64,000 nt of DNA from Centroberyx gerrardi (taxonomy: Eukaryota; Chordata; Actinopteri; Beryciformes; Berycidae), in the NCBI RefSeq assembly GCF_048128805.1, contig NC_136016.1, forward strand, positions 16,512,676 through 16,576,675. Direction: 5' to 3'. Below, piece by piece: positions 10,836 to 48,043 of this stretch. The number at the start of each line of letters is the position of its first letter. Position 1 is the first letter of the stretch. Under the pieces are notes generated by a model. It was not told the DNA's origin. It searched no databases and was given only the letters and a program-made list of their open reading frames with translations. The position numbers and the translations under genes were made by a program.

Positions 10836-10836
10836 G

Positions 10837-10908
10837 TTAGACTCCTTCTGGTGCTTTCTCACAAAATAAATGGGGTACACTTGCTTTTTGACACGAGACA
10901 CAATACAT
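10837..10908 (-). CDS. Upstream ORF of 23 codons ending 1 base before the main start
   Basis: In the same exon as the main start, an ATG at 10908 opens a 23-codon frame (MYCVSCQKASV...) whose TAA at 10839-10837 is followed by one base and then the main ATG (TAACATGG). Such termination next to a start is a known setting for reinitiation or ribosome stalling control. Whether it is translated cannot be told from sequence. Confidence 0.5.
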   Translation of the reverse strand: MYCVSCQKASVPHLFCEKAPEGV

Positions 10909-11990
10909 GGACTCCTTGACAAGTATCAGCAGCTCTTCTCAAATTCTCCTTGTCTGCAACCTGTGGATTGAATGAGTATATATGAATGTAAAACATTTTC
11001 ATTTCATATGACTAAACAATTGAAACTAATTTGGAACCAACATGGCTGTTATTGCCAGGCTAATACTCCATCTAAATTGGACATAAACCAATTTTACTTT
11101 ACATTTTAGCTATAGGACTCTTCCATTTTTCAACTTAATGGCTTTACCAATGGATGTTTATGTTATTTGATTAACAAAAAACACCCAAAAACATAAATTA
11201 CATATACTATTTTTACTACTACTACTATCCAGGAGATGCAATTTGATTGAAAAAACGTGATTAATGCAAAAAAAAAAGTACACTGGATTCTGAGGGGGCT
11301 GAATTTTAACATCAAAAATGGGCGCAAAGGTACAATTCAACCTTTTATTTTTTTTAAATATCAACAGCTCAAGCCAACTTCATACACATTAATTTGTGGC
11401 TTGCAATCACAACCTCTGTGTGAAATTTTCAAGATACTATATAAGCGATTCGGGCACTTAATTCTCACTGCTTCTAGATTTTTCAAGATGGACTCTTGAA
11501 ACCAACTTTATTTTCACCAGTGTCTGTGGCCTACATTGACTTTGGTTATAGGTCACCCTTGTTACAAGGATGTCTAGCAATCTCAGATAAGAATGCCATA
11601 CTGACAGCATTAGGGTCTTGGTGGATTTTGGTTTGACTCTGCATAAGAGAGCTCGTCATGTATCGAGACTGCTGTCTGAGACGTCTGCGCTGCCAAATGT
11701 GTTAATAACAGACGTCAATCTTAATTTCAGCTGGGTCCAAAACCTAACGTCAACAACGGAAAGTCAACACTCAGCGTAGCTATAACACATATTAGATGCC
11801 AATTTAATAAACATCGCATTACCAGCGTTTTATTTTTACAATTTCGCTACAATGAGGGGAGAGGGGGACCGTGATGGTTAGTTAAATATGCTACTGTCAT
11901 CTCTGCTAATTAACCCTAACTACCGGTAATGTTAATGCTAATGTTAGCTTGGTGATGTTAGCTAGCAGAACGGCGAGAACGTTGACTTAC

Positions 11991-13236: not shown

Positions 13237-16200
13237 TCACTCCTTTGTGGTTTTCTTCAGTTTGTTCTTCAGCTCAGACATAAGTGGATTTCCAAATCTG
13301 GTGAAACATGAGAAAACATATTAGAACCATAAAACGCACTCAACACAAGATACTTAATCTGTGCTGAATAGAACAATGATAATTTATGTGTCAAATATAT
13401 ATATATTTTTTTACCCTGGATGTCTTGGTGGCATCCATTTAGGTTTGCGTTCTGCCTCCTCTTGTTTGGGAGCTTCATCATCCTTCTCTTCTGGCTCTGT
13501 TGCAGATTTCTGTTGAATATGTGACAGTTACATACTGTATACACTTCAACACAAGTCACGACATGGCACTCAAAAATTATTAGTAGTACCTGTGAGGAGC
13601 TTTCTGTGTCATGTTCATCCTTCACCACCCTCTGTGTCTTTTTTAAAACAGGAAAACCAGCACCAAATCCTGAAAACAAACATGTATGACATTTTTAACC
13701 GATTATAAATAATAATTTGAGTTACAGTGTAACAAAGTAAGTCTTTTCTTTCTGTTATGTGACCTACCTGGCAGTTTTATTCCGATGCCCAAGCCTCCCA
13801 GTGGCACACCTGCGAGGGCTTTGACTGGCAGACGCCCAGAGGGGGTAGGATCCACAGAGGGCCTCTGAAGGAGGGTGCGGGGATCTTTTGGCGGCCTCAC
13901 ACGACGGTTTTTAACAGCGATTCTTGACTTTTGAGCGCTGAAGTCCAATATAGAGTCATCTACCTGCCATAACAATAGGAAAAAAACCAAGCAAACATCA
14001 CATTCACGGCATTACAACGCCATCTCTGTAGGTCATGAGTGCAATTGTGTGATGTAAATATGACTGAATGAAGCATATCATTTTATTTATGGTTTAGTAG
14101 TTAAATATGCTAATTGAGAAATCATACCTGATCTCCGGATTTTGCTCTTGGTGGCAAACTGACCCGTGGCTCTTCCTCCTCCTCCTCCTCCTCCTCCTCC
14201 TCTTCCTCCTCTTCCTCCTCTGCGTTAAACCCAGGTAAGGATTCAGCGATCGCCTCTGACCTCCCAGGCTGTGATTTGTCCAGTGAGGGATAATTATACA
14301 GCTGATCCTGGGGTTCAAAACTGGTCTCCCCTTGTGAAGCAGATTCTGTCAACACAGTTCCTTCCCCTAACCAAGCCTCTGACTCACTTCTCTCCCCGAG
14401 AAGCACAGACTCTGCTTCCTCTGTTTCATTATGTTGTCCTGAATGTTTGATTTCATTTGGAGAGTTTGACACAATCTTCTCAAGAGGCTCTTCTTTCATT
14501 TCTACTTGCTCGACTTCGAAAAGCAGTGATTTAACATCTACTTCTTCAGCTTCTGTCCAGTCATTTTTCTTTGCTAGTTCGGACTCAGGATCTATCTCAG
14601 GATCAATCTCCCTCTGTAATCCAGTTTCACTCTCCACTGATTCCACTTTTTCTTGTGACTTATCTGATAACTCATTATGTCTGGCCTCTGGTCCTGTTGA
14701 ATCAGGAGGATTCCCTAGAAATCCTGTCTGTCCGGGTATTGCACATATGGATTGTCCCTCTTCAATAAATGATTGCCCTGCCTCAGCTGTTTCCTTCATC
14801 AGTCCATCCTGAGCTTCAGGTTGTTTTGCAGACAATTCAGAGACCTCTGCTGACTCTGGCATACTATCCGACGTCCCATGGATGCCTTGAAATGATCCAG
14901 TACCAGTTAAATTCAGTAGTTGAGCCCCGTTCTTTGCTGTGCTCCATTCACCTAGGGATTGGTCCAGCAATCCTGACTCTGCTGCTGATGAAGATATTTC
15001 AGAGTCAATCACTAATCCAGATTCCCCAGCATTTAATGCCAATAATTGCTCTTTCTCCTCCTCTGTCTTCACTGGCAGAGCTTCGTCTGGTCCTTCATCT
15101 GATTGGTGTATTTCTATGTCAGTTTGTGGTCCAACCTCTGGCTCCTCCAGTGGTTCACTTTCTTCTGTTTCAATGACAATTTTAGGCTCCTTGTCGTCAG
15201 TGTCCTCTGGCAATACCGTCTCTATCCACATGTCAAGTATCTCTTCGTCGGTCTCATTTGCATGTCCAATAACTGCGCTACCTGCTGCTTCAGCGTAACT
15301 CTCCTCTAATTCTGTCACATTTTCTCTCATTTCATGCGTTGCCATTTCTGTTTCCGTTGATAACATAATTGTATCTTTTGGTTTGGGCTCAATTTCCATT
15401 GAATCATCAGACAATTCGGTGTCAATCGTTGTCTCTTCTTTGCTAGTCTCAAGTAGTTCATTTGATAGTTGATGTTTTGTCTCCACTGACTCAATTGCAG
15501 GCTCAGTGTTTGTATCTCTGGACAATTCAGATCCTGCAATCAAAGCATTTTCTTTTTCATCTGTTTCCTTGGTTAATCCAGCTGCCATCTCCACTATCTG
15601 CAGATTTAATACTTCAGTGTCATTTTTGTTTTCTGATTCACTTTCTGCTGCCTTCTCCTCACCAACTCTGAAGTCCATTTCCTCAATATCTAACATTGCA
15701 TCTTGCAATTCTATTGCTAGGTCTTGTAGTTCTACATTATTATCCTCAAGTAATTGAGGCTCGGTCTCAACTGACTGTTTCATCAAGCTAGATTCAGTAA
15801 AGTCTTCTGGTAGACTAGAGGTGCTGCTGCTGTTCTGCTCTGACATTATGGCGTCTGTTGATTCATCAGAGAGCTTTGTCGCTGTCATCTTCTGTAATTC
15901 AGTCTCAAAGAAGTTCAAAGTTTCGTCTGAGAGTCCATCCTCCACGCTGGCGGTCTCTCCAGCATCAGCTTCTCTGGAATCACATAATAATTCTCCATCT
16001 AATTCAAACCCAACCAGTAGCTCTTCAGTCCTATCATACAGGTCTTGTTCTGTCCCGCCAGTTTCATCTGCTGAGCCAACATTTGTCTCAAATGTCTTTT
16101 CTGACTGTTGGCTGCCCGTCTTCATTGATGCGTCCAATCGTTCCACCTCTACCAATAAGTGTCCTGATGCTTGAGTCGTTGTGTCATTCACTGGTTCAGC

Positions 16201-19200
16201 CAATGGTTTCTCTGTTTCCCATGGCAGTTCATTGTCTGTGAGGCACAGTATCCCAGTGTCCCCCTCCACAACCATATCAAAGCTACTCTCAGTATGTTCT
16301 GTCCTTTTTGAGTCTTGTTCCTCTTCCATATGCTCACTCATCAGTAAATGGCCAGCTTCAGTGCTACTGCCAATGTTTTGGAAGCTCTCAGGCTCTTTGC
16401 TCTCCACCCCTTCTGGTAATTGGGTGGTCTGAATTTCCTCGTAATCACCCACTTCCAGGAAGCTTTGTGTTGTATTTTCATCTAGCTCATGGCCATTGTT
16501 GTATTCAGGAACTCCGTCTCGAGTTTCCTCCCATGCTACACAGTTTAGGTCCTGAGGCACAGCAACAGGCCCTTCGCATGTCCCTAGGGAAATATTTTTG
16601 AGCTCTCCACTTATTTCCCCTCCATTGTTGCTGTCAGGTTTTGCTGTTACTGTTACTGTACTGACTGTACACGCTCTGTCCATATAACTTTCTGTTTTTT
16701 CATTTTCACTTTCTTCGTCTATGTTGTCTTTCTCTGTGCCAACAAATCCCTCATCTACTGGAATGTCTACCGTTACCTCTTCTGCTTTTTTGTCACTCAT
16801 TGTCCCGTGATGGATATGTTCCGATATTCCTGAAATCCCTGCACATTTCATTTCAACAGCATCTTCATCACTTGGTTTGGTTTCCATTTCCAAGTCGTCA
16901 GCCTCATCATCTTGGTTTCCATCTTCAAATTCATCTCTGTGCACTTCTATTGTAGCATTCTGTGTCAAGCCTTCACTGCATGTAATATGTTCAGTTACAA
17001 TGTGTTCTTCTTCTTTGCTGTCTTCTGTAACCGCTTCAATGTCATCTTCCTGTTCTGTCCCTTTATCTAATATCTTGTTGTTTGCAATTGCTTCCCCCTG
17101 GTTGACATTTTCTTCTTCAGTTGTAACGCCCTGCTCCCTCTCAACCACTATGCTCCCATCCTCCTCCTCTTTCTGATCTTCAACTTTATTGTTTGCAGTT
17201 CTTTCCATACTCTCAACCATCATCTCCTCTTGTCTGACAACAGTTATCTCATCATCTGCCACAACGCTGCTTTTGTTGTAGGCCATGTGTAAGTCAACAT
17301 GTAGCGCTGCGTCTGAAGAAGAAACGCCTGGGTCTTCCTTTACATCTCTGTCCTCATCTGACACCTCTTCACAGATTGCTACTAGTTCCTGGTCTTGTCT
17401 TGCTCTTGCAGGATCCACTAATCCCTCATTAGACTTGAGGCTGTTTTCATATGTCACCCCTGCATCTGCCTCGTTCTTCTGCTTCCCTGCGTCTTCTACG
17501 TACATGTTATCCTCCACCTCTGCACTCATTTCTGTGAACATGCACAATTTGCCTCCAATTTCATCTGCCCCCAAACTACCAACAATATATGGATCTTTGA
17601 AATCTCCTGGTTGATCCTCAAGGAACATTTCCTTGTCCTCTTCCTGATCCTTGACCTGGAAATTCCTCATGGTTTCATCTACTATCTGTTGATCATCAGG
17701 TATCAATGCTGTGTCAATCTCCTCCTCAGGACCAGTTTTTCTGCCCGTTTCCCCCATGTCTTCACTCACTGCATCATCTGTAAGATTTGGTGACCTGATG
17801 TTCTCATGTTCTTCATACTCCTCAAGCTCCTGAGTCCTGGTCCCATCCCTCATGCAAAGGTACAGTTCCCCATCACTGTTTTTTTCTGCTTCCTCTTCCT
17901 TTGCTCCCGCATCTTTGGCGATGAGCAGTCCTGTGTCTTCATCTCCTGTTTGGGCAACCTGTTCCTCTCTCATACCCTCAACTTCTCTGCTGTTGAACGA
18001 TGTTATGTATTGCATGTTTTCTTTGCCAGATCCTAAGCTGATGTCGATGTTGCAAAGTTCCCAGGCAACAACTGGTGGAGATGAGTCAACCACAGAGGCT
18101 GTTGCAAGAATTGCCAGTTCCTCATCTCCTTTCCCTCCACTGATGTCACTCTCTGCACTATTAACATTACCAGACTCACTGTCAGACAATTCAGCGTCTA
18201 TCATTGTCTCTTCATTTGTAGTCTCAAGTAGTTCATTTGATAGTTGATGTTTTGTCTCCATTGACTCAATTGGTGGCTCAGTGTTTGTATCTGTAGACGA
18301 TTCAGATCCTGCAATCAAAGCATTTTCTTTGCCATCCGTTTCTTTGGTTAATCCAGCTGCCATCTCCACTATCTGCAGATTCAATACTTCAGTGTCATTT
18401 TTGTTTTCTGATTCACTTTCTGCTGCCTCCTCCTCCTCAACTCTGAAGTCAATTTCTTCAATATCTAACATTGCATCTTGCATTTCTATTGCTATGTCTG
18501 GTTGTTCTACATTGTCATCCACAGGTAATTGAGGCTCGGTCACAAGTGATTTCATCAAGCTAAATTCAGGAATGTCTTCTGGTCGACTAGAGGTGCTGCT
18601 GCTGTTCTGCTCTGACTTGATGGCGTCTATTGATTCATCAGAGAACTTTGTCTCTGTCATCTTCTGTAATTCAGTCTCAGAGAATTTCAAAGTTTCATCT
18701 GAGTATCCAATCACATCCTCTGCTGTTACAGCTGTTGTCTCCTCATGTTGTTTATCCGTCTCAATCACGAGTCCATCCTCCACACCGGCGGTCTCTCCAG
18801 CATCAGCTTCTCTGGAATCACATAATAATTCTCCATCTAATTCAAATTCAACCGATGGCTCTTCAGTCCTATCATACAGGTCTTGTTCTGTCCCGCCAGT
18901 TTCATCTGCTGAGCCAACATTTGTCTCAAATGTCTTTTCTGACTGTTGGCTGCCCGTCTTCATTGATGCGTCCAATCGTCCCACTTCTACCACCAATAAG
19001 TGTCCTGATGCTTGAGTCACTGTGTCATTCACTGGTTCACCCAATGGTTTCTCTGTTGCCTGTAGCAGTTCACTGTTTGTGAGGCACAGTATCCCAGTGT
19101 GCCCCTCCACAACCATATCAAAGCTACTCTCAGTATGTCCTGTGCTGTTCAGTTTTGAGTCTTGTTCCTCTTCCATATCCTCACTCACCATTAAATGGCC

Positions 19201-20129
19201 AGCTTCAGTGCTACTGCTAATATTGGTTGTGATATTGAGATGGGCCAGCTGTAATACGTCATCACTACTCTCAGTTTCTTCTCTCATAGATGCTTCATAT
19301 GTTGCCCCTGCATCTGCCTCATTCTTCTGCAACTCTTCTACGTACATGTTATCCTCCTCCTCTGGACTCATTTCTGTGAACATGCACAATTTGCCTCCAA
19401 TTTCTTCTGCTCCCAAACTACCAACAATAAAAGGATCTTTGACATCTCCTGGTTCATCCCCAAGGATAATTTCCTTGTCCTCTTCCTGATCCCTGACCTG
19501 GAAATTTCTCATGGTTTCATCAACTATCTGTTGATCATCAGGTATCAATGCTGCATCAATCTCCTCCTCAGGACCAGTTTCCCCCATGTCTTCACTCACT
19601 GCATCATCTGTAAGATTTGGTGACCTGATGTTCTCATGCTGTTCATACTCCTCAAGCTCCTGGGTCCTGGTCCTAACTCTCTCAAAAAGGTAAAAATTCT
19701 CATCACTGTTTTTTTCTTCTTCCTCTTCCTTTGCTCCCACATCTTTGGTGATGAGCAGTCCTGTGTCTTCATTTCCCGTTTGGGCAACCTGTTCCTCTCT
19801 CATACCCTCACCTTCTTCAGATGCAGGGCCATCACTCCCTCTGTTGAACGGTGTTATGTATTGCATGTTTTCTTTGTCAGGCCCTAAGCTGATGTCGATA
19901 TTGCAAAGTTCCCAGGCAACAATTGGTCGCGATGAGTCAACCACAGAAGCTGTTGTAAGAGTTGCCTGTTCCTCATCTCCTCCCCCTCCCCTGATGTCAC
20001 TCTCTGCACTATTTACGTTACCAGGCTCACTGTCAGCTGTGGACTCCTGGACCGAGTTTGTGTCATTGTTGCCTGTGTTAGCAGCCTCTGGCCTGAAGAA
20101 CCTGGTCACAGCTTCTGATATATAGTTCT

Positions 20130-20167
<38 letters not shown>

Positions 20168-20595
20168 AGATTAGAATGTTATCTGGCCCTAAAAAGAGAT
20201 TATGAATTGGCACAATATCTCTCTACTGTCAGAGATAGAAAGCAGAGACAGATCCTAACCAAGTACAGGCTCAGTGACCACAAATTGGCAATCGAAAAAG
20301 GACGACACAAAAAATCATGGCAATCCAAAAGAAAACAGAATATGTGGTCACTGTTCGACAGATGAGGCTGAGACAGAGATGCACTTCCTCCTACAATGTA
20401 AAACATTAACACTTTACAGAGTTGAACTTTAACAAGTTCAACTCTGTAATTTCAAAGAGCTTAATGACCTCTCAAAATTAAAAATACTCCTAGGAGAAGG
20501 AGACAGGGCATATCTTGCTGCCCAATATGTATCAACATGCCACATCCTGAGGAACAGTGAGTGACCTAGACACACACAGCACGCGCATGCATTCG

Positions 20596-23553: not shown

Positions 23554-23559
23554 TTTATT
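23554..23559 (-). terminator. Poly(A) signal of the Ig-superfamily gene
   Basis: CAATAAAATT on the minus strand, about 285 bases below the stop codon at 23843-23845. Confidence 0.55.
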
Positions 23560-23842: not shown

Positions 23843-26800
23843 TCAGGCAGATGACACTTCCTCGTTGGGTTCTGAAAGAGACCATGAAAACATTCACAAA
23901 CTTCCTGTTGTGGCCAGTTGTGTGGCAGACTGGTGGTTTAGTTCTACCAACATATCTCAGAGGCAGAGCTGCTCTGGAGGCAGAAATAGTCGTATTGGCT
24001 GAATTAAACCTCAATGGGCGGAGCCAAAGAACCACAGTCTTTTAGTTAACTGGCAAACTTGAACGCCAAGAGCTTAGAGAGAGGCAGTACCATCACACTC
24101 AACCAGGTCCATTGTTATGTTAACTTTGTTTGGTGTTTGTAACCAAGTACGATCATTTGAGACTTGTAGCTGTGTTTTGCACTCAGTTTACACACTGAAG
24201 AACGCCTTGAGCCAAAAAGTCTGTGTTTTTCCTTCCCTGCCCCATCTTTAATAAAAGATGTCAGAAGTAATTTAGCCTACAGACTGTTATGAGTGCGAAC
24301 CACTGCTACAATTCACAAAACTTGAATGGCAAACAAGGAATTCTGATCAAAATATAAACAAAAAATATAAATGGCAACAACTTTTTTCATTCTGTCATGA
24401 TCATGGCATTCATGAGCTTGGAAGGTCAGCAGGCTATAGCTAACTAGCTTACCAAGACAGCTACAGGCCAAAGTACTGTCTCTGTATTCATAATATTCCC
24501 ATGATGTCACATGCATTTCTATCAATATGGTGCTTTACTATACACACAGCTCATTGGCTGTGGCTGTCATTTGATTACCTAATTTATTACAATCACCTGT
24601 TACTTTCCCACCAAGATGGCTGTGTGGTGTACTTGGATGGTCAGCTAGGCTAAATAGCTAATATAGATAACTTGGCATTGCTAGATTGCATTTTTTCAGT
24701 TAGTAACAAGAGTGCTAGGCTTCATTATTTATTATTATTATTTTCCTCCTCGCCTTTTTCAGTTGGCTTGAGTCTACTTACTTATACTGTAGATCTTTGG
24801 CTCCGCCCACTGAGTTTTAACTCAACTCAATTAAAACTCCAATCTGCAGATGATGTGAATGTGTATGCTCCAGTTTAGGAAGGGTTACATTATATAGCAA
24901 AAATGATGTTTCAGTGACAGATATATTGTTATATTTACTAGCAGAGTGAATTGTTATAGTTGCTCATGGCACAGCGGTGTTGTACCTGTCCATGTTCGGT
25001 AAACAGGCAGCTGGAGTGCCGGGTGTGTGATCTCCACACACACTCTCAGTCTCGCTCCCTCATCTCCTCTGGGGCCCCTCCTCAGGTTGACTCTGTTTAT
25101 GTGCAGTGCGCCTGACTCTTCCTCCCTCTCTTTGTCACTCTCATCTTCCTCCTCTGTCTTCATTTCCTCTCCCCTCTCAATGTTGTTATTCTCCCCATCC
25201 ACCTTTTCATCGATGTATTCAATTCCTTCAGCGTCAGGGTCTGTGACAGCAGCTTTTGTTTCTGCAGAGAAACGCAGACACAGAAAGTTACAAAAGAGTC
25301 ACAGAATTACAAAATCAGTTTATCGTTTAAGCCAGAATAAAGATATGAACATATTGGTGGTAAGTTAAAGACAAATACTTATTGCATGTCCATTCCTCTG
25401 TCTCTCCAGCTGTTTGTCCGTCCGACTCGGCCGGCTTGTGGACCTCTCCAGGGCGCACACGCTCCTCAGCTCCCTCTGTCCATCATCTCCTATCTCCTCC
25501 GTCTCGTTGGACACCAGCGGCGACAGGGTGTGTCCACCCGCTGCCCAGAGTAATTTGACCCTGGGGTGCCCTCCCTTCAGCAGGAGAGAGAACACACCGA
25601 CGCCTTCGCTGCTCCAACAGACCGAGAGAGATGGAGGAATGGAGGGAGCAGCTAAGGGAGAGGAAAAGAGAGAAAGTGTGTGTGAATGAGAGTTGAAACA
25701 TGGGAGGATTTGTCTGATTTTTATCCATAGACCAAGGGAGGAACATGGAATATTCAACAGAGGATTTTATCACAATATAGAAAGTTATTGACTTGTAATG
25801 ATTCATACCAATGTCGATATTTCTCCAGTGTCTCTCAATAGGCTCGAGTAGTGAACAGTGCTCCACTCTACACACAATCCCTCCCCCCCTCTCTTTTTTC
25901 TCCTGATTTGTTCCCCTTCTTCTCAGAGTGGCTGTAGCCCGGTAGAGTCTGGGATGCGTCTGTATGGGACCCCACACCTCTCCTCCCTCCATCACTTCCT
26001 CCTCTCGGTCGTCTTGCTCTCCCTCTCTCAGCTTCAGCCAGGTGACTGACAGGTTGGGAGGGTAGAAGCCTGTGATGTCACATCCCAGGGTCAAAGGTTG
26101 ATCGGGGGAAGAGGTGGAGCTGACGATCTCCGACACGCACGGCCTCTTGATGAAACCTATTGGGAATCGGGTGGAGAATTAATCTTTCTTTCTCCCGTCT
26201 TGCTTAAACATGCAAGATACAAGGCATCGACATAATAATAACAATAATAACTTAATTTTTATAGCACCATTCATACACAGAATGCAACTCAACATGCTTT
26301 ACATACAGTAAAATAAATGGATTAAAACAATTACAAGCAAAAAAAGAAAAAAAGAAAGATAAAAATAGGTAAGTAAGGACAATAATAAATACCTATATAC
26401 CTAGATACCTATGATTTACCGCGTTCCAGTGTAGGAATGACCCTCTATGCCTATACAACTTATAAATATTACACTCTTCTCTACTCTATCAATACTCTAC
26501 ATACTCTAATACAGATTTTTCCCTTTGTTACTCTCGTTGTCTACTCTCTACTCCAGATTCAGCCTCCCTCTCACCTCTGGTCTCGCGGGTGACCGGCTGT
26601 TTGAGGGCGATGTGGTGGACGCTGACCCACACCTTGGTGCCTCCCTTCTCCAGCTCGCTGCGGGGCAGCTTACACTGGCTGGAGGCTGAGAAGAAGCCCT
26701 CAGCGTCAGGTCGAGGGGAGGACAGGGCCTGGGAGGCCACGGGGCTCAGCTCGCCGCCCTGGCAGAACCAGCGGAAGGTGATGATGTCTGGGTGGAAGTG

Positions 26801-29800
26801 GGAGGCCTGGACGGTCAGGGAGATGATATCTGGAGGAGAGAAATTGGAGGGATATAGAATTAAGAGGGGAAGCACTTTTTATAGAACCATGACAGGAGGA
26901 TCTACTGTTTGCTGTACCTGAGTCATCCGCTGTCTCCGCTAGCTGAATTTCAGACACTTCTGGGGCAGCTGAAAGAAAACGTTGACAGAAAATTCAGTTA
27001 TAGTATTTGTGATAATCATTATCACAGCTACAGCAGGCCAAGCGGACAAGAGACAATCTTTCCTCACCTAGAATTGTAAACTTCTCCGACACCCTCTCCA
27101 CCACCACCTTGTCCTTCCCTATGTAGGACACCTGACACTTAAACACGGCGCCCTTGTGGAGTGAGATGCGGGGGATGAAGGTGAGCGAGGAGAGCAGCTG
27201 CTGGGTGCCGGTTCCTGAGGAGTGCAGCGGCCCCTGGGTGTGCAGCTTGTAGTAACCCATCTCGTCTCTGGAGGGCAGGAGAGGACCCTTCTCCGACACT
27301 GGGGAGGTGAGAGTGAGACCGTAGGGCAGATGGATGGTGGTTAGGGGGTTATAGAGGCAGTTAAAGTTAGTTTTGGAGGGTCCTATGTGCGTTAGGTTGT
27401 TATTTGTTAGCAGCATTAAAGTGTAAAAGAGAAAACACAGTAAGTCTCAGGAGCAGAAATACAAAGCAGACAGTTAAGTCACACTGCTATTTCATGTGTT
27501 ATCATTCATTTGCCACTGCTCTGTATTTAAAGTATTCTAATGAAATGAATCCAAATACATTTCCCAATCCCTGTCTTCCTGAATCGATTATTCATTAGTA
27601 CCTCTGATTATCTGGATATTTTGTGGCCCTCCTACCTGTGAATGAGGTGTCGGAGATAGGGGTGTCATTGAGGAACCATGCAGTCTGGACCCGGTCCACC
27701 CTCCTGCCCTCGATGCTCACTGTCACCCTGCCCTTGTGACCCACAATCACCCGCGGAGGGAGGATGACCCCTGATACATTCAGAGACTTCTGTTTTTCTG
27801 AGGCAGGGCGAGGGGGAGAGAGATAGAGGGAATAACAAGAGTCAGTGAGAAAAAAGAGGTGGGGCGGCAGGCATTGTGCAATATTTACAGGGGTTGCTCA
27901 AGCTACGCAAGCTATGCATGCGGTTCAGTATTCAGGTTCAGCACATTTTCCTCACAGCCTTTTGGACCTAGTGCCGATGAATTCCACTGTTCAATATATT
28001 GCGCATACTGTTGGTTTCATGGCATGGCAGGATCTGACTCACCATCCCTTCTCCTCCATGAAAAGCCGAAGCAGAGCAGGAAGACCAGAACCAGAGAGAT
28101 GCACATCAGAGCGACAGATGCTTTGGCTGATTTAGTCAGCACTGGATCTTTATCTGAGAGGGAACAGAAAGAGAGAAGGGAGCTGGGCGAGATTCCTAGA
28201 CCTTACCACAACAATCCCACTACTTCCTCTTCTACTACTACTACTACTACTATTTCCTCTGCTACTATTACTTCTACTGCCACTACATTATTACTATTAG
28301 CAGTAGCACTAGTAGTATGTTCTTGAGGAAGCATTACAGTATGAACCCCATAAGAGCATAACAACATTTTATCTCATGGGTTATTTCGACCAGTCAAATC
28401 AAATGTAAATCTAACCTGGTGGGTCCAGTTCTTCCAGGTAGGCGGAGCCGTGGACTGGGTGTGTCACCCCAGGTTGATCGACCACACACCCCACCCGCCC
28501 GGCCTCCTCCCTCTGCTCCGGGCTCAAAGTGTAATAGCGCCTGGTTCTGTAGGTCCCATCGGGGCCCTGCTCCGTCCCCGGGGGCTCGGGGAGGACGGTG
28601 CCGTTTTGAAGCCAGGACACAGACACTTCCTCTGGGTAGAAACCCTCAATGTCACAATACAGAGTGAGGGGAGCGCTGCGGGAGGCCGAGGGCACGGCAG
28701 ACAGTCTGACCGCAGGGAGATCTGAGGAGAGGGAAGAGAGGGTGAAGATAAAAGTATTTAAATCTTGTTGGCTTAATTAGGCAGCACAAATTGTTGTCGG
28801 TCATCATCGCAATTCACTTACAGCAATCAATCACTAATATTCAGATTGATGGCCAGATTTACCACAAGAATGTAAGCCAAAGACAGATGCCGAAGAAAAA
28901 AAAACCCCAAAAACAAAGGGAAAGATATTATGCAACCTTTTGATCCCTTTAAAATATCCGGCATGTGCCATAAGATGTGACCTGTGTGCAACAAATAGCG
29001 ACCAAACAGATTGTCCTGTCACTCACAGGTGATGTTGAGTTGGAAGTCCAGGACTTGATGACTGCCAGCATGTGCGACCTTGCAGCCAAAGGTCACATTC
29101 TGGTCCTCCTGGGAGGGGTAGAAGGTCAGGTTGCCCACAGCGCTGTAGTAGCCATCTGCAGTCTGTTCACCTTCAACCTGGTGGGGAGGACGAATCACGC
29201 GGCCATCTCTGGTCCAGGAGAAAGAGACGGGAGGAGGGTAGAAACCGTCCGCGCGACACTCAATCTGGCTCTCCGTCTCCAACACCACCCACTGCTGAGG
29301 GATCAGGAGAGTGGGGGAAGCTAAAACAGGGGGAAAGAAAGAAAAATTTGGGGAAAAAGAGGGGGGAAAAGAGTTCAAGCTCCAAAACTATGTCTCAGTC
29401 CTCAACTGACTGCTGAAAAACCAACATCAACTGAACAAAGACATACCCAGGATACTCAGAGTGACATTACTGGAGCGCAGCTTAGTGGCGTTGTAGCTGA
29501 CGGTGCAGTCATACACCCCCTGCAGGTTGAGACTGGCTTTCAGGACGGTCAGTGAGAAGTTCCCATTGACAAACTGACTGGTGTCCCAGCTGAAGCCGTC
29601 CTTTATTTCCCTCGCTGCTTCTCCGAATGAGGCAATGCCAGAGCCATTAGTTACCCAGCTGACCTCAATGAGAGACTCGTCTATTTCACCCCCCTCTGCA
29701 GAGGGAGGGAGTGTGACATTGCAGGGGAGGATGGCACTCGTATTCGGGCTGGCCTTCACTTCAGTTGGAGAAGCTGTAAGCAGAGAAAGATAGTGTTAGG

Positions 29801-31633
29801 AAGGGGAGAAAATGAAAGAGCCTTTGCTGAACAGCAGTCACTGAGCCCCCTTGTCTATACTGGGACAAGGAGAGTCTGTAACATTATATTGAGGAGATTG
29901 TATGAACTCTTGGTGAAATGAGCCTTTAATATTAGGCTTATTGGCTGGATTTGAAGAGTCTGGTCCTGAACTGTAGCTGAGGATGTCGATCAAAAATACA
30001 TTCCTGTCCAACCAAAGGGGCAACTAATTTAAATGAAATTAAAATTAAATTATTTGTTTGTGTGGAGCTTGGTCAACAGACACTTTGCAAGAGTTAAATG
30101 TTCCTACATATAGTATTTTAAGAAGTGTCGTGAGCTGTCATCTGTGTCACTCAAGCTGAGGATGTGGTCAGCTCGCCTACAGTGTTCTATATCAGCTGCA
30201 CTTCTTTTTTTAGCACAGTTATTACCATTAGAACAATAGAATTCGAACAATAAAATACCTTTCGACCTGGGCAAATAGCATTGTGTTTATTTATATTGGC
30301 ACATGTCATAAACCTGGAAGAATAGTGATAAGGAATTTTGAGTCAGGGGTTTCATGAAAATTTCCATTTCACATTCTCACCTTTCAAGTCTTTGAAGTCA
30401 AAAGTTTCAACACACTTTCTTGAATTTTGTGACATACTTCAGGGTAAATACAAAGTCTTTCAGCTAGGTCTGGCCCCGCTATATCAGCTTAATCAATAAC
30501 TAGTACAATAAATATTTGTTGGCAGGTATAGAGACAAGCAATGGAAAACTTTCTCTCTGAAGTGTTTATGTTGCAGCTTGTTAAGAGTGACAGATGGGCA
30601 GATCATAGCAGGATGACAGGGAGGAAAAGAACAAGTGAGGGAGTTTTAACAGACATGATTGATGCTCTATGCGAAGGTGATTAAGTGTCTAACTGTCTAG
30701 TGCTGATTATAAAAGTATGAATATTCACAATTAACAGAAAACAGGAGACTGATCCACCAAGGAGGGGACGCTTATTTCACCTTGTGGTCTGGATTTAGAC
30801 TGATTTAAGAGGAATTTAGGACATTCAGGTCAATCCAGAGCATTTGCTTCTAAATTATTTCAATTTGGAAGAAAAATTATGGGTTGATAATGTTAAGAAT
30901 ATACTTTACGCTGTTTGTAATAGTAATGATCCATTAGAAATGAAGTGCGGAGCCCACATTTTTGGATACTGTGGAACGAAACATTTTAAACTGAATGAAA
31001 GCAAGCGGCTGACAATGCTATTGGCCTATATGGATTTTAGATTTCTTATATGGAAACTTCCATTCTGAAAGTATACAAAGTGATTTAATGTCCAAACAGT
31101 AACTCTTACACGACTAGTTTCTGAAAATGCAGGCACATGTGAATAGTATTACACTGTTATAGTCCAATATCGTTACTGGTCCTAGTCGTTAACTGGTCCA
31201 GTTTGAAGTTGACTTTCTATTAAAATAAAATCAGGGAAATGTCATGAATTCTGGTCAGGTGCATGTTGACCCTGACATGACTGAATATGACCAACATGCA
31301 CCATCAGGTCCAATTCTTTTACACTTATGTCACCTCCCACCTTATAAAACCAGTACAAGCTCAACACGGTCTCATTATTGATTTGCAATAAGATTATCAG
31401 AAAACATCGTTGTTGCAACCCTCCCATTCAGAGTCCACCTGAGAAAGCCGAATGCCTACATTTCCCAATTCCACCTGGTCAGCTCACGTTTACGCAAACC
31501 AGAGCATTACCTAAAAAAAACACAAAAAAGCCCAATGCAGGCTTTTTATCATGCCTGTGAGGTTGATGACACAATACTCACCATGCTTTATGAGAGTCAG
31601 GAGGTAGACATAGAGGAGGACTTTACACCGCAT
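23843..31633 (-). CDS. Ig-superfamily protein V-C1-C1-TM followed by four more Ig units
   Basis: Thirteen exons join in phase 1 throughout: 31582-31633, 29447-29773, 29027-29320, 28416-28721, 28043-28153, 27636-27797, 27068-27298, 26918-26968, 26575-26829, 25809-26156, 25379-25651, 24986-25261, 23843-23871; 904 residues. Order: signal peptide (MRCKVLLYVYLLTLIKH); IgV (AILPCNVTL, GVYDCTVSY); C1 (IECRADGFYPPPVSFSW, FGCKVAH); C1 (LYCDIEGFYPEEVSVSW, VGCVVDQ); membrane segment (SVALMCISLVLVFLLCFGFS) followed by WRRR; a V-like domain split over two exons; a 17-residue linker; a C1-like domain lacking both core cysteines; a normal C1 (LGCDITGFYPPNLSVTW, VCRVEH); a C1-like domain split over two exons with an acidic insert; and a short tail. 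The C1 domains resemble tapasin, SIRP and MHC-type domains; I cannot name an ortholog. The last exon is the least certain: without that splice the frame stops at 24954. Confidence 0.72.
26225..26400. repeat. Interspersed repeat fragment in the Ig gene intron
   Basis: The stretch TTTTTATAGCACCATTCATA...CATGCTTTACATA is of a kind common in fish genomes, where it occurs as short dispersed copies. Not assigned to a family. Confidence 0.35.
28043..28153 (-). other. Transmembrane exon (phase 1-1, 111 nt) in the middle of the Ig array
   Basis: Encodes 37 residues: DKDPVLTKSAKA, a 20-residue hydrophobic helix and the stop-transfer cluster WRRR. Both borders are phase 1, so skipping it keeps the frame and would give a soluble or luminal product carrying all Ig units. 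Confidence 0.8.
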
Positions 31634-31659: not shown

Positions 31660-31690
31660 CTTATCATCAGCCCCTCTCGCACTCTTATAT
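31660..31690 (-). promoter_or_regulatory. TATA promoter of the Ig-superfamily gene
   Basis: CTATATAAGAG on the minus strand (core 31683-31690) lies 50-57 bases upstream of the ATG at 31633, giving a very short leader starting near 31660. Confidence 0.65.
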
Positions 31691-32179
31691 AGAGCTGTGA
31701 GGTGACAGTGGGCGGGCTCGTCTTGCCAGAGGGGAAATAAGAAATATTGTCCCTAGGCCTCACAGGAGAGAAAGGAGGCCCTTGATATGTGTATGTCCAG
31801 CTGTAAAAAAAACGAGGACTGATAGAGCGAGGAGAGCAAAAGCGAGGGAGGAAAAGGAGGGAGATGTGCAGGGAAAGCGGTCACTTAAAATTCAGATGGG
31901 GCTCTGGCCAAGGTTTTGGGGCTACTTTACATTGGTGCAGTGTTGCCGTGAACAAACAGTGAGGGCGATCCCACTGAGCTTATGTGGGCAAACACTCAAG
32001 CGAGAATACCCCTCTTTTCTATCCGGAGGAAAGTTACTGTAGTGTTGCGTTTTGGAGAGAAAGAAGAGAAGAAAAGGGAGAGGGGTTCACAGCTTCTTCT
32101 CTGATCCGGCTCTGCGCTATCTCCCCGGACAGATCGCTGCCATGATCGCTCCCTCTGATTGTAGTTAAACTTTAGCCAG

Positions 32180-34985: not shown

Positions 34986-37848
34986 ATGGCATTTTGGACT
35001 ACATGGATATTCTTACTGCCTATCATCTTTAATGGGCAAGGTATGTTGCAAACTAAATTCTGATTTATCCAGAGCTGTCAATGAATTATTTTGAATCTGA
35101 TTATATTATATATATATTTATATTATATATCTGATTATAATCTGATTAAAATCCTTTTCTCAAATAATGTAAAGTCGTGAAACTATAGAGAGGTTTAGTT
35201 AGAGTTATAAGTGGAGAGGTTACCTAGCAACAGTCTCTAATATTTCAGTTGTTGTGAAAACAACTAGGCTACATGATTTGCTTACCTCATGTGGAATAAG
35301 GACTGCGCTACCCCATTAATGATACAAAATACATTACTCATACAATATTAGAAGATGAAGATTAAGATTAACATTACTGATCTCTGAAGGAAAATTTCGT
35401 CATTGCAGCAGTAAAGAACTTGATATAAAAAAATACATAATAAATAAAGCAACATATTGAAGGTCATGACGTGATAGGTGATGTCATTTCTTCATCTCTC
35501 TTTTCTACAGAGTCAAAAGCTCAGGGTAAGTACAGTCACATTTTACACATTTCATACAGTCATGTAAATGCCATAGTTGCTCAGCTGCTGTTTTGTACCT
35601 ATGACCATTTAACAAAGGATATTTTCAACATCATGTACGCACCGCAAAGCAAACAAAATGACATAGTTCAGATGCTCCCACACACACCCACACACACACT
35701 CTTCTGGTACATGCATATAAAGTATGCACCACAAAGCAAACAAAATAACATAGCTCAGATGCTCACACACACACGCACACACACACATCATCAAACAATC
35801 AATTTTGTTCCTCTATATACTATATTTAGATGACTTTATCTCTATCTCCTATCAGACTGTGGAGTGGCACCTCTGAACACAAAGATAGTTGGGGGTGCGG
35901 GTGCTGCAGCGGGATCGTGGCCCTGGCAGGTCAGCATGCACTACAATCCTGCAGCCAGTCACATCTGTGGAGGGACCCTCATCAGCGACCAGTGGGTGCT
36001 CACTGCAACCCATTGCATGATATCGTAAGACACAAGCTCTATTATTACAAAAATTCCTGCTGCCTCTCTCCTCGGCTCATTTTTATTTCTTTTCCTCTCA
36101 CTTTAACCAGTTAGACTGAACAAGTCCTGTGTTTTTTTGTCCAGATTGAGACTCAGTGACTGGACTCTGTACATGGGCAGACAGACTCAGATAGGCTCCA
36201 ACCCCAACGAGGTAACCCGCTCCGTCTCTCAGATCATCGTCCATCCCGACTACAACAACACATTTCTAAACAATGACATCGCCCTGATGAAGCTGAGCAG
36301 TCCGGTCAGTTTTACCAGCTACATCAGACCCATTTGCCTAGCAGGTAACTCCAGCCTTTTCCATAGCGCAACTTCCTGCTGGGCCACTGGCTGGGGCAAC
36401 ATTGGGAAGGATGGTGAGTATCTTATGATGATTGTATAGTTGGGGCCAGAGCAAGCCTCAGGGCTTCATTTCATTCAGGGTTGTTGTTCTAATTCTGTAT
36501 TCTGTGGTCAAACTATCCATAAACATCATGCGGGCTATTCACTGTGCACTGACCTGGATGGTGGATATACAATGCACCCTCCATGTTACTGTCTGAGGTA
36601 GTCTTGTTTCAGAGGAGACCTGGAACTTTTAATGTCTGCCAGTAACACAAATGGAACAGTGTCATCTGCACGGATTTCCATTTCCAGTAGCTTCCACTGA
36701 ACTGAACTTTTAAATTCATGTCGATGACTCTGATCCACTAGCCACACAGATCTTTCCATATCAAATTTCTGCCAAATCAGGCTCAGGGTACAGTGTCAAA
36801 TGAACACAGCGGTATCATAGAGGATTCAAAATGTGCTACAGTAAACATTCATGTTTGTGATGAGAGACTGATTTGAGAACTCTCTTTCCCACAGTCCCGT
36901 TGGGATCCCCTCAGACGCTGCAGGAGGTTGAGGTGCCTGTGGTTGGAAACAATCAGTGCTCTTGCCAGTATATTCTAGTAGAGGGGGCCAATATCACTGA
37001 CAACATGATTTGTGCGGGGAGAGAAAACAAAGGAGCATGCCAGGTGAAAACAAGTGGTTTATGGTTTATGCAGGATGAGCCGAATAACTCACCAGTGTAA
37101 TCTATGACGTGATAAATTAATACTTTTAAAAAACATACAAAAATATAATGTTATATGCAGTTTGAGGGCCATGGCAGCCTGACGAATGTCATAAGCCAAG
37201 ATAGGTCATAAGACCAAAATATTGTATGTTTTCACAATAAAATAGTTTCCTCTTCTATTTTGTAGGCATTTTGTAGTCTTCTTTGATGTATCTGTTACCA
37301 ACAATACTAAGTTGTGCAAAGGACCAACTGTTTTGTCTTCCCTAATACGTCCTCACCTTTTCTTCTCTCATCCTCATTGACACCGCTTCCCAACACTTCC
37401 CTCCCTCCCTGCTTCTTGTCTCCATGTCTCTCCTCCTCAGGGCGACTCAGGTGGACCTGTGCAGTGTAAGCAGGGCTCAGTGTGGATCCAGGCGGGCATC
37501 ACCAGTTTCGGGATTCCCTGCGCTCTGGCCAATTTTTCCGAGGTCTACGCCCGAGTGTCTCAGTTCCAGACGTGGATCACAGATCACGTGGCTGGGGCGA
37601 ATGTTGGCTTTAGGACATTTACCTCCAGTGGGACCGACCAAGACAACAGCTTTGTGTGCCGAAACACAGATTCTGGGACCGCAACCACGGCAGCTACAAC
37701 CACGGCAGCTACAACCACGGCAGCTACAACCACGGCAGCTACAACCACAGCAGCTACAACCACGGCAGCTACAACCACAGCCTCCTCTGCAGCTGGTGTT
37801 GGCTTACAGTCCTCACTGTTTGCCCTCATACTGACTATGTTCCTTTGA
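34986..37848 (+). CDS. Membrane-anchored S1 serine protease, copy 1
   Basis: Chymotrypsin-fold protease, probably extracellular and held at the cell surface. Exons 34986-35040, 35511-35525 (15 nt), 35856-36024, 36145-36413, 36895-37043, 37441-37848; 354 residues. Signal peptide [18 protein letters not shown]; short propeptide with Cys (DCGVAP) that would link to the catalytic chain; activation site NTK|IVGG; His in TATHC (usually TAAHC); Asp in NNDIALMKL; Ser in GDSGGP. Then a Thr/Ala-rich stalk of six TAATT-type repeats and a hydrophobic end ([16 protein letters not shown]) with no charged tail, which fits a GPI signal or a tail anchor. Position 189 is Gly and 226 is Glu (chymotrypsin numbering), so this is not an ordinary trypsin-like pocket. 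Closest in layout to prostasin/testisin-type proteases; exact ortholog not claimed. Confidence 0.93.
37681..37780 (+). repeat. 15-bp coding tandem repeat in the protease copy 1 stalk
   Basis: GCAGCTACAACCACG repeated about six times encodes an Ala/Thr stalk likely to carry O-glycans. Copy 2 has none of these units. Confidence 0.93.
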
Positions 37849-38221
37849 CCACAGTTAGTAGGCTAATGATCAAAAAAAGCTGGTCGATAAGGTTTAATCC
37901 TGACTTAAAACTGCACTGATAACTTGGAACCTGCAGAAGGTATTCCACATTACTCACCACTTTTTGCATTACACATCCTGTGCATGATGAAACTGACACT
38001 GCACTGGAGCTTTGTGGCACTTTAATTTCCATGGAGAAAGAATGTTCTTTGAACTGCACTGAATTGTATTCTGGTGGCTTGTTTTGATTAAATGTAAACT
38101 TGATGGGAAACTTTGACAAACCTGATTTAAAACATCATTAATGTTCTCTGAAACACCTGGAATTTTGGTGTTTGAAATAGAGTGGTGAAAATCCATTCAG
38201 GCTGTCAGGCCACCAAAAAGA

Positions 38222-43222: not shown

Positions 43223-46200
43223 ATGGCATTTTGGACAACATGGATATTCTTAGTGCCTGTCATCTTTAATGAGCAAGGTATGTTTTTATGTTGATGCTGC
43301 TGGTGAGTTGGAAACTTATTCAGATTTATCCAGAGCTGTCAATGAATGATTTTGAATGTAATTATAAATTTATGTCAAAATGATTTTCTCAAATCATAAA
43401 AAGTCGTGAAACTATAGAGAGGTTTGCAGTTATAGGTCGTAATAAGTCGTTACCTAGCAACAGTCTCTAGCAATTTAGTTGTTGTGACAAACAACTATAT
43501 GATTTGCTTGGGATATTTACCTCATGTGGAATAATGTCTGTGTTACCCCATTAATGATACAAAACATTACTCATACAATATTATAAAATGAAGATTAAGA
43601 TTACATTTGAGATTAAGATTACAGACATTATTGATGCCTGAGGGAAAATTGAGTCATTGCAGCAGTAAAGTAGCAGTAACTTGATAGAAAAAAATGCAAT
43701 AAATACAAAGGTTAAAGATGTAAGATACGTGATTTCTTCATCTCTCTTTTCTACAGAGTCAAAAGCTTGGGGTAAGTACAGTCACATTTTATACATTTCA
43801 TACAGTCATGTAAATGCCATAGTTGCTCAGTTGCTGTTTTGTAACTACGCAGCAAATGCTATCAGACGGAGATCATACGAGTCATCACACCTTTCTATAA
43901 CAGTGTTTAGTTAAATATACATTGATAATCATTCCATGCCTATCTCTATCTCCTATCAGACTGTGGAGTGGCACCTCAGAGCACAAAGATAGTTGGGGGT
44001 GTGGGTGCTGCAGCGGGATCGTGGCCCTGGCAGGTCAGCATGCACTACAATCCTGCAGCCAGTCACATCTGTGGAGGGACCCTCATCAGCGACCAGTGGG
44101 TGCTCACTGCAACCCATTGCATGATATCGTAAGACACAAGCTCTATTATTACAAAAATTCCTGCTGCCTCTCTCCTCGGCTCATTTTTATTTCTTTTCCT
44201 CTCACTTCTCTCCTACATTAACCAGTTAGACTGAACAAGTCCTGTGTTTTTTTGTCCAGATTGAGACTCAGTGACTGGACTCTGTACATGGGCAGACAGA
44301 CTCAGATAGGCTCCAACCCCAACGAGGTAACCCGCTCCGTCTCTCAGATCATCGTCCATCCCGACTACAACAGCACATTTCTAAACAATGACATCGCCCT
44401 GATGAAGCTGAGCAGTCCGGTCAGTTTTACCAGCTACATCAGACCCATTTGCCTAGCAGGTAACTCCAGCCTTTTCCATAGCGCAACTTCCTGCTGGGCC
44501 ACTGGCTGGGGCAACATTGGGTATAATGGTGAGTATCTTATGATGATTGTATAGTTGGGTCAGTGCAAGCTTCAGGGCTACGTTTCATTCAGGGTTGTTG
44601 TTGAAATTGTGTACTCCGTGGGCAAACTGTAGATTCTTATAAAGACTTCGGAATTTGGCTGGATACAAACTATCCTTCAAGACCCATGTAGAACACCTCT
44701 CTCACAGGCTGAAAGTTAAAATTGGATTCCTGTTTAGAGATAAAGCTGCTTTTCGGTGCCCTATAGGATGTCATGTCTGTCTTAGATTATGGAGACACTC
44801 TGTATTCACATGCTGCCCCTTCCATGTTAAAACCACTTGGTGCAGTGAACCACAGTCCTCTGTTTTATTACTGGTGATAAATTTCATACTCACCACTGTA
44901 TCCTATACGAAAAAGTGGTATGGTCTCCTTTAACAAAAAGAAGGGAAATGCATCGTATTTTGTTCATTTGTAAGGCTATGGAAATTAAGACATGGGAGTG
45001 ACTATTTCCAGGTTCCCGGAAGGTTCCCCGGACTTACACATTCAAAAGTTGAATGAACCGTTACAGAATTACCCATTAGCTCAAATGAATAGCAGCTGCG
45101 TCGGAAAAAACGCAGCTATTGTAACGTTAGGTTGTTGTAAAGTTAGGTCTATCTTGTATGACTAGCTCTACTTTGTCTCTCCCACCAGACAAGACGACAG
45201 AGGGACAAGTTCAGGCTAGGTTCACACTGGACGCGGAAGCAAAGCCTGGAACTTTTAATATCTGCCAGTAACACAAGTGGAACGGTGTCATCTGTATGGA
45301 TTTCGGCCTAGTTTGAAACAACAGAACTGAACTTTTAAATTAAGGACCAGACTTTGTTCATGTAAATGACTCTAATCCACTAGCAACACAGATCTTTCCA
45401 TATCAAATTTCTGCTAAATCAGGCTCAGGGTACAGTGTCACATGAACACAGATTCAAAATGTGCTACAGTAAACATTTGTGTTAGAACAGCAACTTGACT
45501 CCTTCAGGTTTGTACTGATAACAGCTTGCGTGGCCTTCTTGATGACATCACACACACACATTACATTTTTTGCCTTTTTGTGGTATATGTTAAAAAGTTT
45601 GGGCACGCCTGTTCTCTAACCAATGACTCAAATTTTTATTATTTAAATCATAAACAACACCATACAGGACATACATGACTAACAAACAATCCCCCCTCCC
45701 AACAGGACTTCCTCCAACCCCAAGCCCCCTGGGGGCAAAGCGTGCAATTTGGGGATTGTCTAACTTTCATTTAAAATAATTTGCGTGGTGTGCAGTATGT
45801 TCTGAGAGTAAAGTTATAATGAATCATCTGATGGTTTGGATTTCTTGACGAAAATGAAATATTGGTCCAGACCCTGGACCAGTTAATAGTTGTGTTAATT
45901 AATGATAAATCTTTTTTCCATAGAGTGTCAATTGGCATTGTCTTAAGTGTTGCTTTTAACAACAGAGAATATAATTTGGAAACCAAACCTCGAGTGCTCT
46001 CAGTGGTATATATGCTATATAATGGGTGTAACGGCAGTTCTCGTCCCCAGGGTACTCCATAAGCATTTAAAGCAGAACAAAGCTGTAAATAAAAGAAAAA
46101 AGAGGTGCCCGGGAGATTAAACTGTTGCTGTAGATCTTGAAATGTGTGGAGGCTGCAGTCTTTGATGATGTTTGCAATTGTGTGGATCCCTCTTTTAGAC

Positions 46201-47909: not shown

Positions 47910-48043
47910 CCACAGTTAGTAGACTACTGATTCAAAAAAAGATAATTGATAAGGTTGAATCCTGGCAGAAGGTATTCCACATTACTGATCACATGCAGAA
48001 ATGCAGAAACCTTTAATATTACACAGCCTTGGAAATTTGTAGC

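What the first reader, a model, noticed from the sequence alone, without database searches (positions are those of the whole stretch)
23843..31633. Ig-superfamily protein with four Ig units on the far side of its only membrane segment
Thirteen exons join without a phase break, with V-C1-C1 before a single membrane helix plus WRRR stop-transfer cluster and four further Ig-like units after it. If made as read, these would be cytosolic. The intron between the membrane exon and the next Ig exon is only 245 bp, leaving little room for a gene boundary. C1-type Ig domains in the cytosol would be very unusual for a vertebrate receptor.
Basis: partly seen in the sequence, partly recalled or inferred. 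Interest (0 to 1): 0.82.

Follow-up and report, generated by a model that had tools for sequence, protein, structure and literature searches.

The report
Receptor with Ig domains behind membrane
A fish immune-receptor-like gene reads as one unit whose protein has antibody-type domains outside the cell, one membrane segment, and then more antibody-like domains that would sit inside the cell, and a second gene in the same genome has the same odd order.

Summary
The observation largely holds. Thirteen minus-strand exons, all phase 1 with GT-AG introns, join into 904 aa: signal peptide, V, C1, C1, one membrane helix, then a 541-aa tail. Tail exons 6-12 have no stop, against a mean of 20 in shuffles. 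Of the four tail "Ig units", one is a clear C1 domain and one a weak C1 match whose main exon models as an Ig sandwich; the other two rest on residue patterns. No poly(A) signal lies in introns 2-11; scans found no second membrane exon and no signal-peptide exon in the tail introns.

New: a second locus (C5:6003948-6009858) also reads signal-V-C1-helix-V-C1-C1-stop, with one helix and all phase 1. In the window gene three of four tail units lack the cysteine pair, and glycosylation sites concentrate before the helix, as a cytosolic tail predicts. Against this, the C5 tail keeps its pairs, and a weak signal-peptide-like candidate lies in the C5 intron after the helix.

Best reading: one gene, tail cytosolic in the membrane form. 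Main rival: in-frame skipping of the membrane exon. No RNA or other species could be examined.

The parts
31684..31691 (-). TATA box (TATATAAG), 58 nt upstream of the ATG
31582..31633 (-). exon 1: start codon and signal peptide MRCKVLLYVYLLTLIKH
29447..29773 (-). exon 2: V-type Ig unit, 6 N-glycosylation sequons
29027..29320 (-). exon 3: C1-set Ig unit
28416..28721 (-). exon 4: C1-set Ig unit
28043..28153 (-). exon 5: the only membrane helix found, followed by WRRR; 111 nt, phase 1-1; contains a Met at 28106
27798..28042 (-). intron 5, 245 bp; no AATAAA/ATTAAA, no signal-peptide-like exon by the scan
27636..27797 (-). exon 6: first half of tail unit t1 (V-like by residue pattern only; Val in place of the first Cys by hand alignment)
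   Evidence: one search gives exons 6-8 only Ig_2 at E 0.2
27068..27298 (-). exon 7: second half of tail unit t1
26918..26968 (-). exon 8: 51 nt, probable A strand of tail unit t2
   Evidence: assignment by eye
26575..26829 (-). exon 9: tail unit t2, C1-like with Val at both canonical Cys positions; models as an Ig sandwich
25809..26156 (-). exon 10: tail unit t3, C1-set with Cys pair and an acidic insert
25379..25651 (-). exon 11: first half of tail unit t4 (Ig-like by pattern only)
   Evidence: no Pfam match
24986..25261 (-). exon 12: acidic stretch and second half of tail unit t4
23843..23871 (-). exon 13: end of the protein and stop
23554..23559 (-). AATAAA, 284 nt after the stop

Best explanation
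One transcription unit makes a type I membrane protein. Its luminal/extracellular part is V-C1-C1, of the B7-H6/SIRP/Ig-constant kind. One helix spans the membrane, and a 541-residue cytosolic tail carries at least two, probably four, further Ig-fold units with acidic inserts. I infer that the head binds a ligand and that the tail works as a scaffold for partner proteins, as cytosolic Ig domains do in titin or palladin, in place of short tyrosine signalling motifs. Shown: the exon chain, the frame, one helix only, no poly(A) signal in introns 2-11, loss of the Cys pair in exon 9, and a second locus with the same order. Inferred: that one mRNA spans it, the topology, and the scaffold role.
For: Phase-1 chain of 13 exons with GT-AG introns. 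Tail exons: 0 stops against a mean of 19.98. TATA box before exon 1, AATAAA after the stop, none in introns 2-11. Only one phase 1-1 hydrophobic exon passes the scan of 32.5-23.4 kb. Exon 9 has Val/Val in place of the Cys pair yet models as an Ig sandwich; by hand alignment t1 reads Val/Cys and t4 Leu/Val, while the core Trp is kept in 4 of 4. 14 of 14 other C1 units of this genome that I examined keep the pair (chosen with a profile built from Cys-bearing units, so biased). Sequons: head 10 (mean 1.74, 0 of 2000 shuffles reach it), tail 3 (mean 1.78). Second locus on C5 with the same order and one helix; sequons 3 in head, 0 in tail.
Against: No RNA evidence. The C5 tail keeps Cys pairs in 3 of 3 units, which fits an oxidising compartment at least as well. 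The membrane exon can be skipped in frame in both genes. The tail sequon counts are not below chance (C20 tail 3, mean 1.78; C5 tail 0, mean 1.95, 11% of shuffles as low). Four TATA-like matches lie in tail introns and AATAAA/ATTAAA in introns 1 and 12, three each. On C5 a signal-peptide-like candidate (L017:6960-7074) lies between helix and tail. t1 and t4 are not recognised by Pfam. No ITIM and one YxxL in the C20 tail. The two loci are not shown to be paralogues.
Confidence: 0.44

Rival explanations
1. One gene, but the membrane exon is a cassette. Skipping it (111 nt here, 120 nt on C5, both phase 1-1) gives a secreted protein with all Ig units in the lumen. The tail is selected for in that form, and in the membrane form it is cytosolic ballast or is rarely made.
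For: The exon is symmetric in both genes; the C5 tail keeps the Cys pair in 3 of 3 units (product, read by eye); exon 10 here keeps its pair.
Against: The membrane exon has good-looking splice sites here (ctgttccctctcag / gtgagt; judged by eye). Three of four tail units in the window gene lack the Cys pair, and the tail is not enriched in sequons, both odd for a secreted protein.
Confidence: 0.27
2. Two overlapping products: the head ends after the membrane exon, and the tail is made from its own internal start. One version: an internal promoter with the Met at 28106 turns the membrane segment into a signal peptide (MCISLVLVFLLCFGFS), as the internal signal of IGSF1 does for its C-terminal part.
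For: The scan for signal-peptide-like first exons lists 28106-28043. IGSF1 has such an arrangement: an internal signal peptide and, in rodents, a transcript that starts in intron 9 (PMC9162367, passages read).
Against: The hydrophobic stretch has no basic n-region and WRRR follows it. The C5 membrane exon has no Met. No AATAAA/ATTAAA in intron 5 and none of the five TATA-like matches lies near 28.1 kb. Each half of IGSF1 has its own helix; here only one helix was found.
Confidence: 0.15
3. Two tandem genes whose border is not visible to simple signals (unconventional poly(A) site after exon 5; tail gene with an unrecognised or distant first exon, for instance exon 1 spliced straight to exon 6).
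For: All exons are phase 1, so any joining is possible, and phase agreement alone proves little in Ig genes. TATA-like matches lie in introns 8, 9 and 12. On C5 a signal-peptide-like candidate exon, L017:6960-7074 (MSAKPNISGILIIIIMF..., weak donor GTACCT, running into a microsatellite), lies in the helix-to-tail intron.
Against: It would have to be true at two loci with the same order; no AATAAA/ATTAAA in the intron after the helix at either locus; no such first exon in the tail introns of the window gene.
Confidence: 0.12

Closest known systems
IGSF1 (eutherian mammals)
   Same: Ig units, then hydrophobic sequence, then more Ig units in one open frame; explained by a gene duplicated just upstream of itself (PMC9162367, passages read).
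   Different: In IGSF1 an internal signal peptide puts both halves in the ER lumen, each half with its own helix, and the chain is cut. Here one helix was found, no second hydrophobic segment, and no helix after the tail. IGSF1 has C2-type loops (PMC5501590, passages).
SIRP-alpha
   Same: V-C1-C1-helix layout of the head (layout of SIRP recalled); among the PDB sequence matches of head and tail.
   Different: No ITIM in the tail here; SIRP has no Ig units behind its helix (recalled).
B7-H6 (NCR3LG1), B7-H3 (CD276), TAPBPR
   Same: V-C1 heads: B7-H6 matches the C20 head; CD276 (E 1.2e-27), TAPBPR and B7-H6 match the C5 head.
   Different: None has Ig domains after the helix (recalled).
UrIg (shark)
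   Same: Non-rearranging V plus C1 units; UrIg2 (9dmx) is second in the PDB list for the head.
   Different: UrIg lies in the MHC class III region of elasmobranchs (PMC10751288, passages); this gene lies between eif3c and an aldolase gene. The passages seen describe no Ig units behind a helix.
Cytosolic Ig proteins (titin, palladin, myotilin, obscurin)
   Same: Ig folds that work as scaffold in a reducing compartment; titin is among the PDB matches of both heads.
   Different: I-set rather than C1-set, and no membrane helix next to the Ig units (recalled; only titles and abstract starts seen).

Membership tests
Immunoglobulin superfamily | Ig-fold domains | tested here: met
   V-set and C1-set over Pfam cut-offs; model of exon 9
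Type I membrane receptor | signal peptide and one helix with basic stop-transfer | tested here: met
   hydropathy by script; no trained topology predictor was available
SIRP family | V-C1-C1-helix | tested here: met
SIRP family | ITIM-bearing tail (SIRP-alpha) | tested here: not met
   0 ITIM patterns in the C20 tail
IGSF1-type split protein | second hydrophobic segment acting as internal signal for the C-terminal half, and a C-terminal helix | tested here: not met
   one hydrophobic segment between head and tail, none after it
UrIg | V and several C1 units | tested here: met
UrIg | MHC class III linkage | tested here: not met
   genes recognised in the 64 kb window: eif3c, trypsin-like, aldolase; linkage beyond the window not looked at
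Same family as the C5 gene | same exon order and phases | tested here: met
   signal-Ig-helix-Ig-stop, all phase 1, in both; number of Ig units differs (3+4 against 2+3) and the window gene has units split over two exons
Same family as the C5 gene | units closer to each other than to other C1 units | tested here: inconclusive
   exon 10 and the C5 head C1 are reciprocal best (z 17.5 and 17.9); exon 4, exons 8-9 and the last C5 unit score best with MHC class II C1 units

The most novel reading that the evidence does not exclude
A fish receptor family, present at two loci of one genome, that carries C1-type Ig domains on both sides of the membrane. In one member the cytosolic units have lost their disulfides (Val/Val in exon 9) while keeping the fold, so antibody-type domains have been turned into a cytosolic scaffold.
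Probability: 0.34. Interest if true: 0.85.

Novelty: new variant of a known kind. Interest (0 to 1): 0.66.

Why it matters
C1-type Ig domains are, as far as I recall, known only in the secretory pathway or outside the cell. A vertebrate receptor with C1 units on the cytosolic side would be a new receptor layout and a natural case of antibody-type domains adapted to a reducing compartment. If instead the membrane exon is skipped, it would be a switch between a membrane receptor and a long secreted multi-Ig protein, with the membrane exon in the middle of the gene rather than near its end. One RNA experiment separates these outcomes. In nine paper searches no listed title or abstract start described a vertebrate receptor of this layout; several lists were cut (15 of 2,019, 15 of 268, 8 of 206, 20 of 48), and the library lacks most subscription journals.

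Tried and rejected
Gene border in intron 5: no AATAAA/ATTAAA and no signal-peptide-like exon by the scan. Second helix missed by hand: in 32.5-23.4 kb only exon 5 passes. On C5 a looser donor rule gave one extra hydrophobic candidate between helix and tail, L017:7012-7138, made of a GTA-type microsatellite; with the stricter donor rule it drops out. I take it and the neighbouring signal-peptide-like candidate L017:6960-7074 for repeat noise, but neither is excluded.

Are C20 and C5 direct paralogues? Smith-Waterman z-scores among 12 Ig units and against 11 of the 14 other C1 units do not settle it; best partners are not in collinear order.

Other loci with this order: 12 stretches of the genome holding C1 or weak hits were scanned, the C5 one included. 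Ten of the other 11 hold C1 units that look by sequence like MHC class II, MHC class I, beta-2-microglobulin, Ig light chain or TCR genes (names by eye, no call); one (C22) gave no C1 hit. Two of them (C24, C12 near 6.56 Mb) show a hydrophobic candidate between two C1 hits; I read these as the signal peptide of the next gene copy and a TG-type repeat, by eye. One search scored 150 of 222 C1 candidates, and the large clusters (C17 near 8.8 Mb, C19 near 25.7 Mb, C23 near 2.4 Mb, C7 near 14.5 and 20.0 Mb, C2 near 31.6 Mb) were not opened, so the number of such genes is unknown. The Cys-pair control (14 of 14) is biased, because those units were found with a profile built from Cys-bearing units.

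Rfam: 0 matches at gathering threshold in 20-36 kb. The model of exon 10 was only moderate (pLDDT 66.5). Weak hit C22:15985804 (E 0.37) not pursued beyond.
Full report
What is there. The window is G000:C20:16512676-16576675 of a 779 Mb assembly. On the minus strand thirteen exons from 31633 to 23843 join without a phase break: exon 1 ends in phase 1, every internal exon is a multiple of three, and 12 of 12 introns are GT-AG. The product is 904 aa: signal peptide, V unit, two C1 units, one membrane helix with WRRR, and a 541-residue tail.

Is it more than chance? Exons 6-12 are 1596 nt with no in-frame stop; shuffled exons carry 19.98 stops on average and 0 of 5000 shuffles had none. Third-position G+C is 0.62-0.87 in exons 6, 7, 9, 10 and 11, but only 0.41 in exon 8 and 0.53 in exon 12, against 0.33-0.49 G+C in introns 5-12 (all). 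This looks like maintained coding sequence, not decay. Phase agreement by itself says little, since Ig exons are usually phase 1 (recalled).

Where does the gene begin and end? TATATAAG lies 58 nt before the ATG and AATAAA 284 nt after the stop. Introns 2-11 hold no AATAAA or ATTAAA; introns 1 and 12 hold three each. Four further TATA-like matches lie in tail introns at 26883, 26399, 26263 and 24896. A scan for other signal-peptide-like first exons on this strand (32.5-23.4 kb) gave three hits besides exon 1: 28971 in intron 3, 28106 inside the membrane exon, and 23749 behind the stop; none in the tail introns. The same scan for hydrophobic phase 1-1 exons gave exon 5 only. So I see no seam between head and tail, but the Met in exon 5 leaves room for an internal start.

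The tail units. Exon 10 is a C1 domain (32.4 bits). Exons 8-9 are a weak C1 match (18.0 bits, cut-off 21); exons 6-8 reach only E 0.2 with Ig_2, and exons 11-13 match nothing. In exon 9 both canonical cysteines align with Val, yet AlphaFold2, with three other window exons as alignment, gives an Ig sandwich (pLDDT 84) that matches IgM C4 at TM-score 0.82. By hand alignment unit t1 has Val/Cys and t4 Leu/Val at these positions, and all four units keep the core Trp. 14 of 14 other C1 units that I examined in this genome keep the pair (biased, as they were found with Cys-bearing queries). N-glycosylation sequons: 10 in the 309-residue head (shuffle mean 1.74; 0 of 2000 reach it), 3 in the tail (mean 1.78, so about chance). 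Exons 11-12 are 18.6% Asp+Glu. The picture fits a tail that does not meet the ER lumen, but none of it proves topology.

A second case. A weak match of the tail to C5:6005939 (E 0.013) led to L017. There seven exons, all phase 1 and GT-AG, join into 619 aa: signal peptide, V, C1, one helix (KD 2.77), V-like, C1, C1, and a stop soon after the last Ig unit, with no further helix. The helix-to-tail intron is 668 bp and has no AATAAA/ATTAAA; the two later introns hold three such signals, and an AATAAA lies about 0.4 kb behind the stop (L018:266, read by eye). All 3 sequons are in the head, none in the tail. Pfam recognises V (59.2 bits) and C1 (37.0) in the head and C1 in the second and third tail units (48.2, 62.7); the first tail unit is below cut-off. 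The head resembles CD276, TAPBPR and B7-H6, the tail antibody heavy-chain constant domains. Neighbours are a kinase ORF that reads like TP53RK (by eye; Pfam gives a Kdo-kinase match) and a Serinc gene. Against a simple parallel: its tail keeps all three Cys pairs, and the helix-to-tail intron holds a signal-peptide-like candidate with a weak donor in low-complexity sequence (L017:6960-7074). Whether the two genes are direct paralogues is not settled.

Best reading and rivals. I hold one gene making head and tail in one chain to be about 70% likely. Within that, the tail is either cytosolic in the main membrane form (0.44) or mainly used in a secreted form made by skipping the symmetric membrane exon (0.27). 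An internal start that turns the helix into a signal peptide, in the manner of IGSF1 (0.15), and two genes with an invisible border (0.12) take nearly all of the rest. IGSF1 is the nearest precedent in gene layout, but each of its halves has its own helix and the second half its own signal peptide (passages); neither was found here.

What it would do. Head: ligand binding as in V-C1 receptors (inference from family). Tail: no ITIM, one YxxL and three PxxP in the C20 tail; one ITIM-like pattern in the first tail unit of C5. I therefore favour a scaffold role by Ig-Ig contacts over tyrosine signalling; this is inference.

Novelty. Nine full-text searches listed no paper whose title or abstract start describes a vertebrate receptor with Ig domains behind its only helix. 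Passages of three papers were read. Several lists were cut, the library lacks most subscription journals, and no annotated fish gene set was on hand, so an unnamed database entry for this gene in other fish is likely. I file it as a new variant of a known kind.

Noticed in passing
G000:C5:6003948-6009858 (L017:3948-9858): Second gene with signal-V-C1-helix-V-C1-C1-stop, one helix in the middle, all phase 1; tail keeps its Cys pairs.
   Followed up: yes
window 23872-24985 and L017:7622-8179: Intron 12 and an intron of the C5 gene share stretches of a dispersed repeat (67-92% identity in five pieces) with short inverted ends (27 bp, 92.6%), MITE-like.
   Followed up: partly
window 14122-20178 (-): Very acidic open frame of 2018 aa with internal direct repeats of 0.45-0.76 kb at 87-92% identity. 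APOBR-like by position and composition only (guess, no family call).
   Followed up: partly
window 35400-37960 and 43654-47992 (+): Tandem pair of trypsin-like serine protease genes, main pieces 77.5-95.6% identical; one copy carries a threonine/alanine repeat near its C-terminus.
   Followed up: partly
window 7521-10925 (-): Open frame of 1134 aa with several repeats of about 80 aa (KNITMNDSSCLKASLEVTQDISTVDS..., by eye); only a weak match to DUF2694 (24.4 bits, cut-off 22).
   Followed up: no
window 28416 (-): The donor of exon 4 overlaps a stop (CCA CCA GGT TAG): retaining intron 4 would give a V-C1-C1 protein without the helix.
   Followed up: no
L017:6960-7138: Low-complexity stretch between helix exon and tail of the C5 gene that in one frame reads as a signal-peptide-like start and in another as a hydrophobic exon.
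   Followed up: partly
window 26883, 26399, 26263, 24896 (-): Four TATA-like matches inside tail introns, two or more expected in A+T-rich introns by eye; not tested against chance.
   Followed up: no
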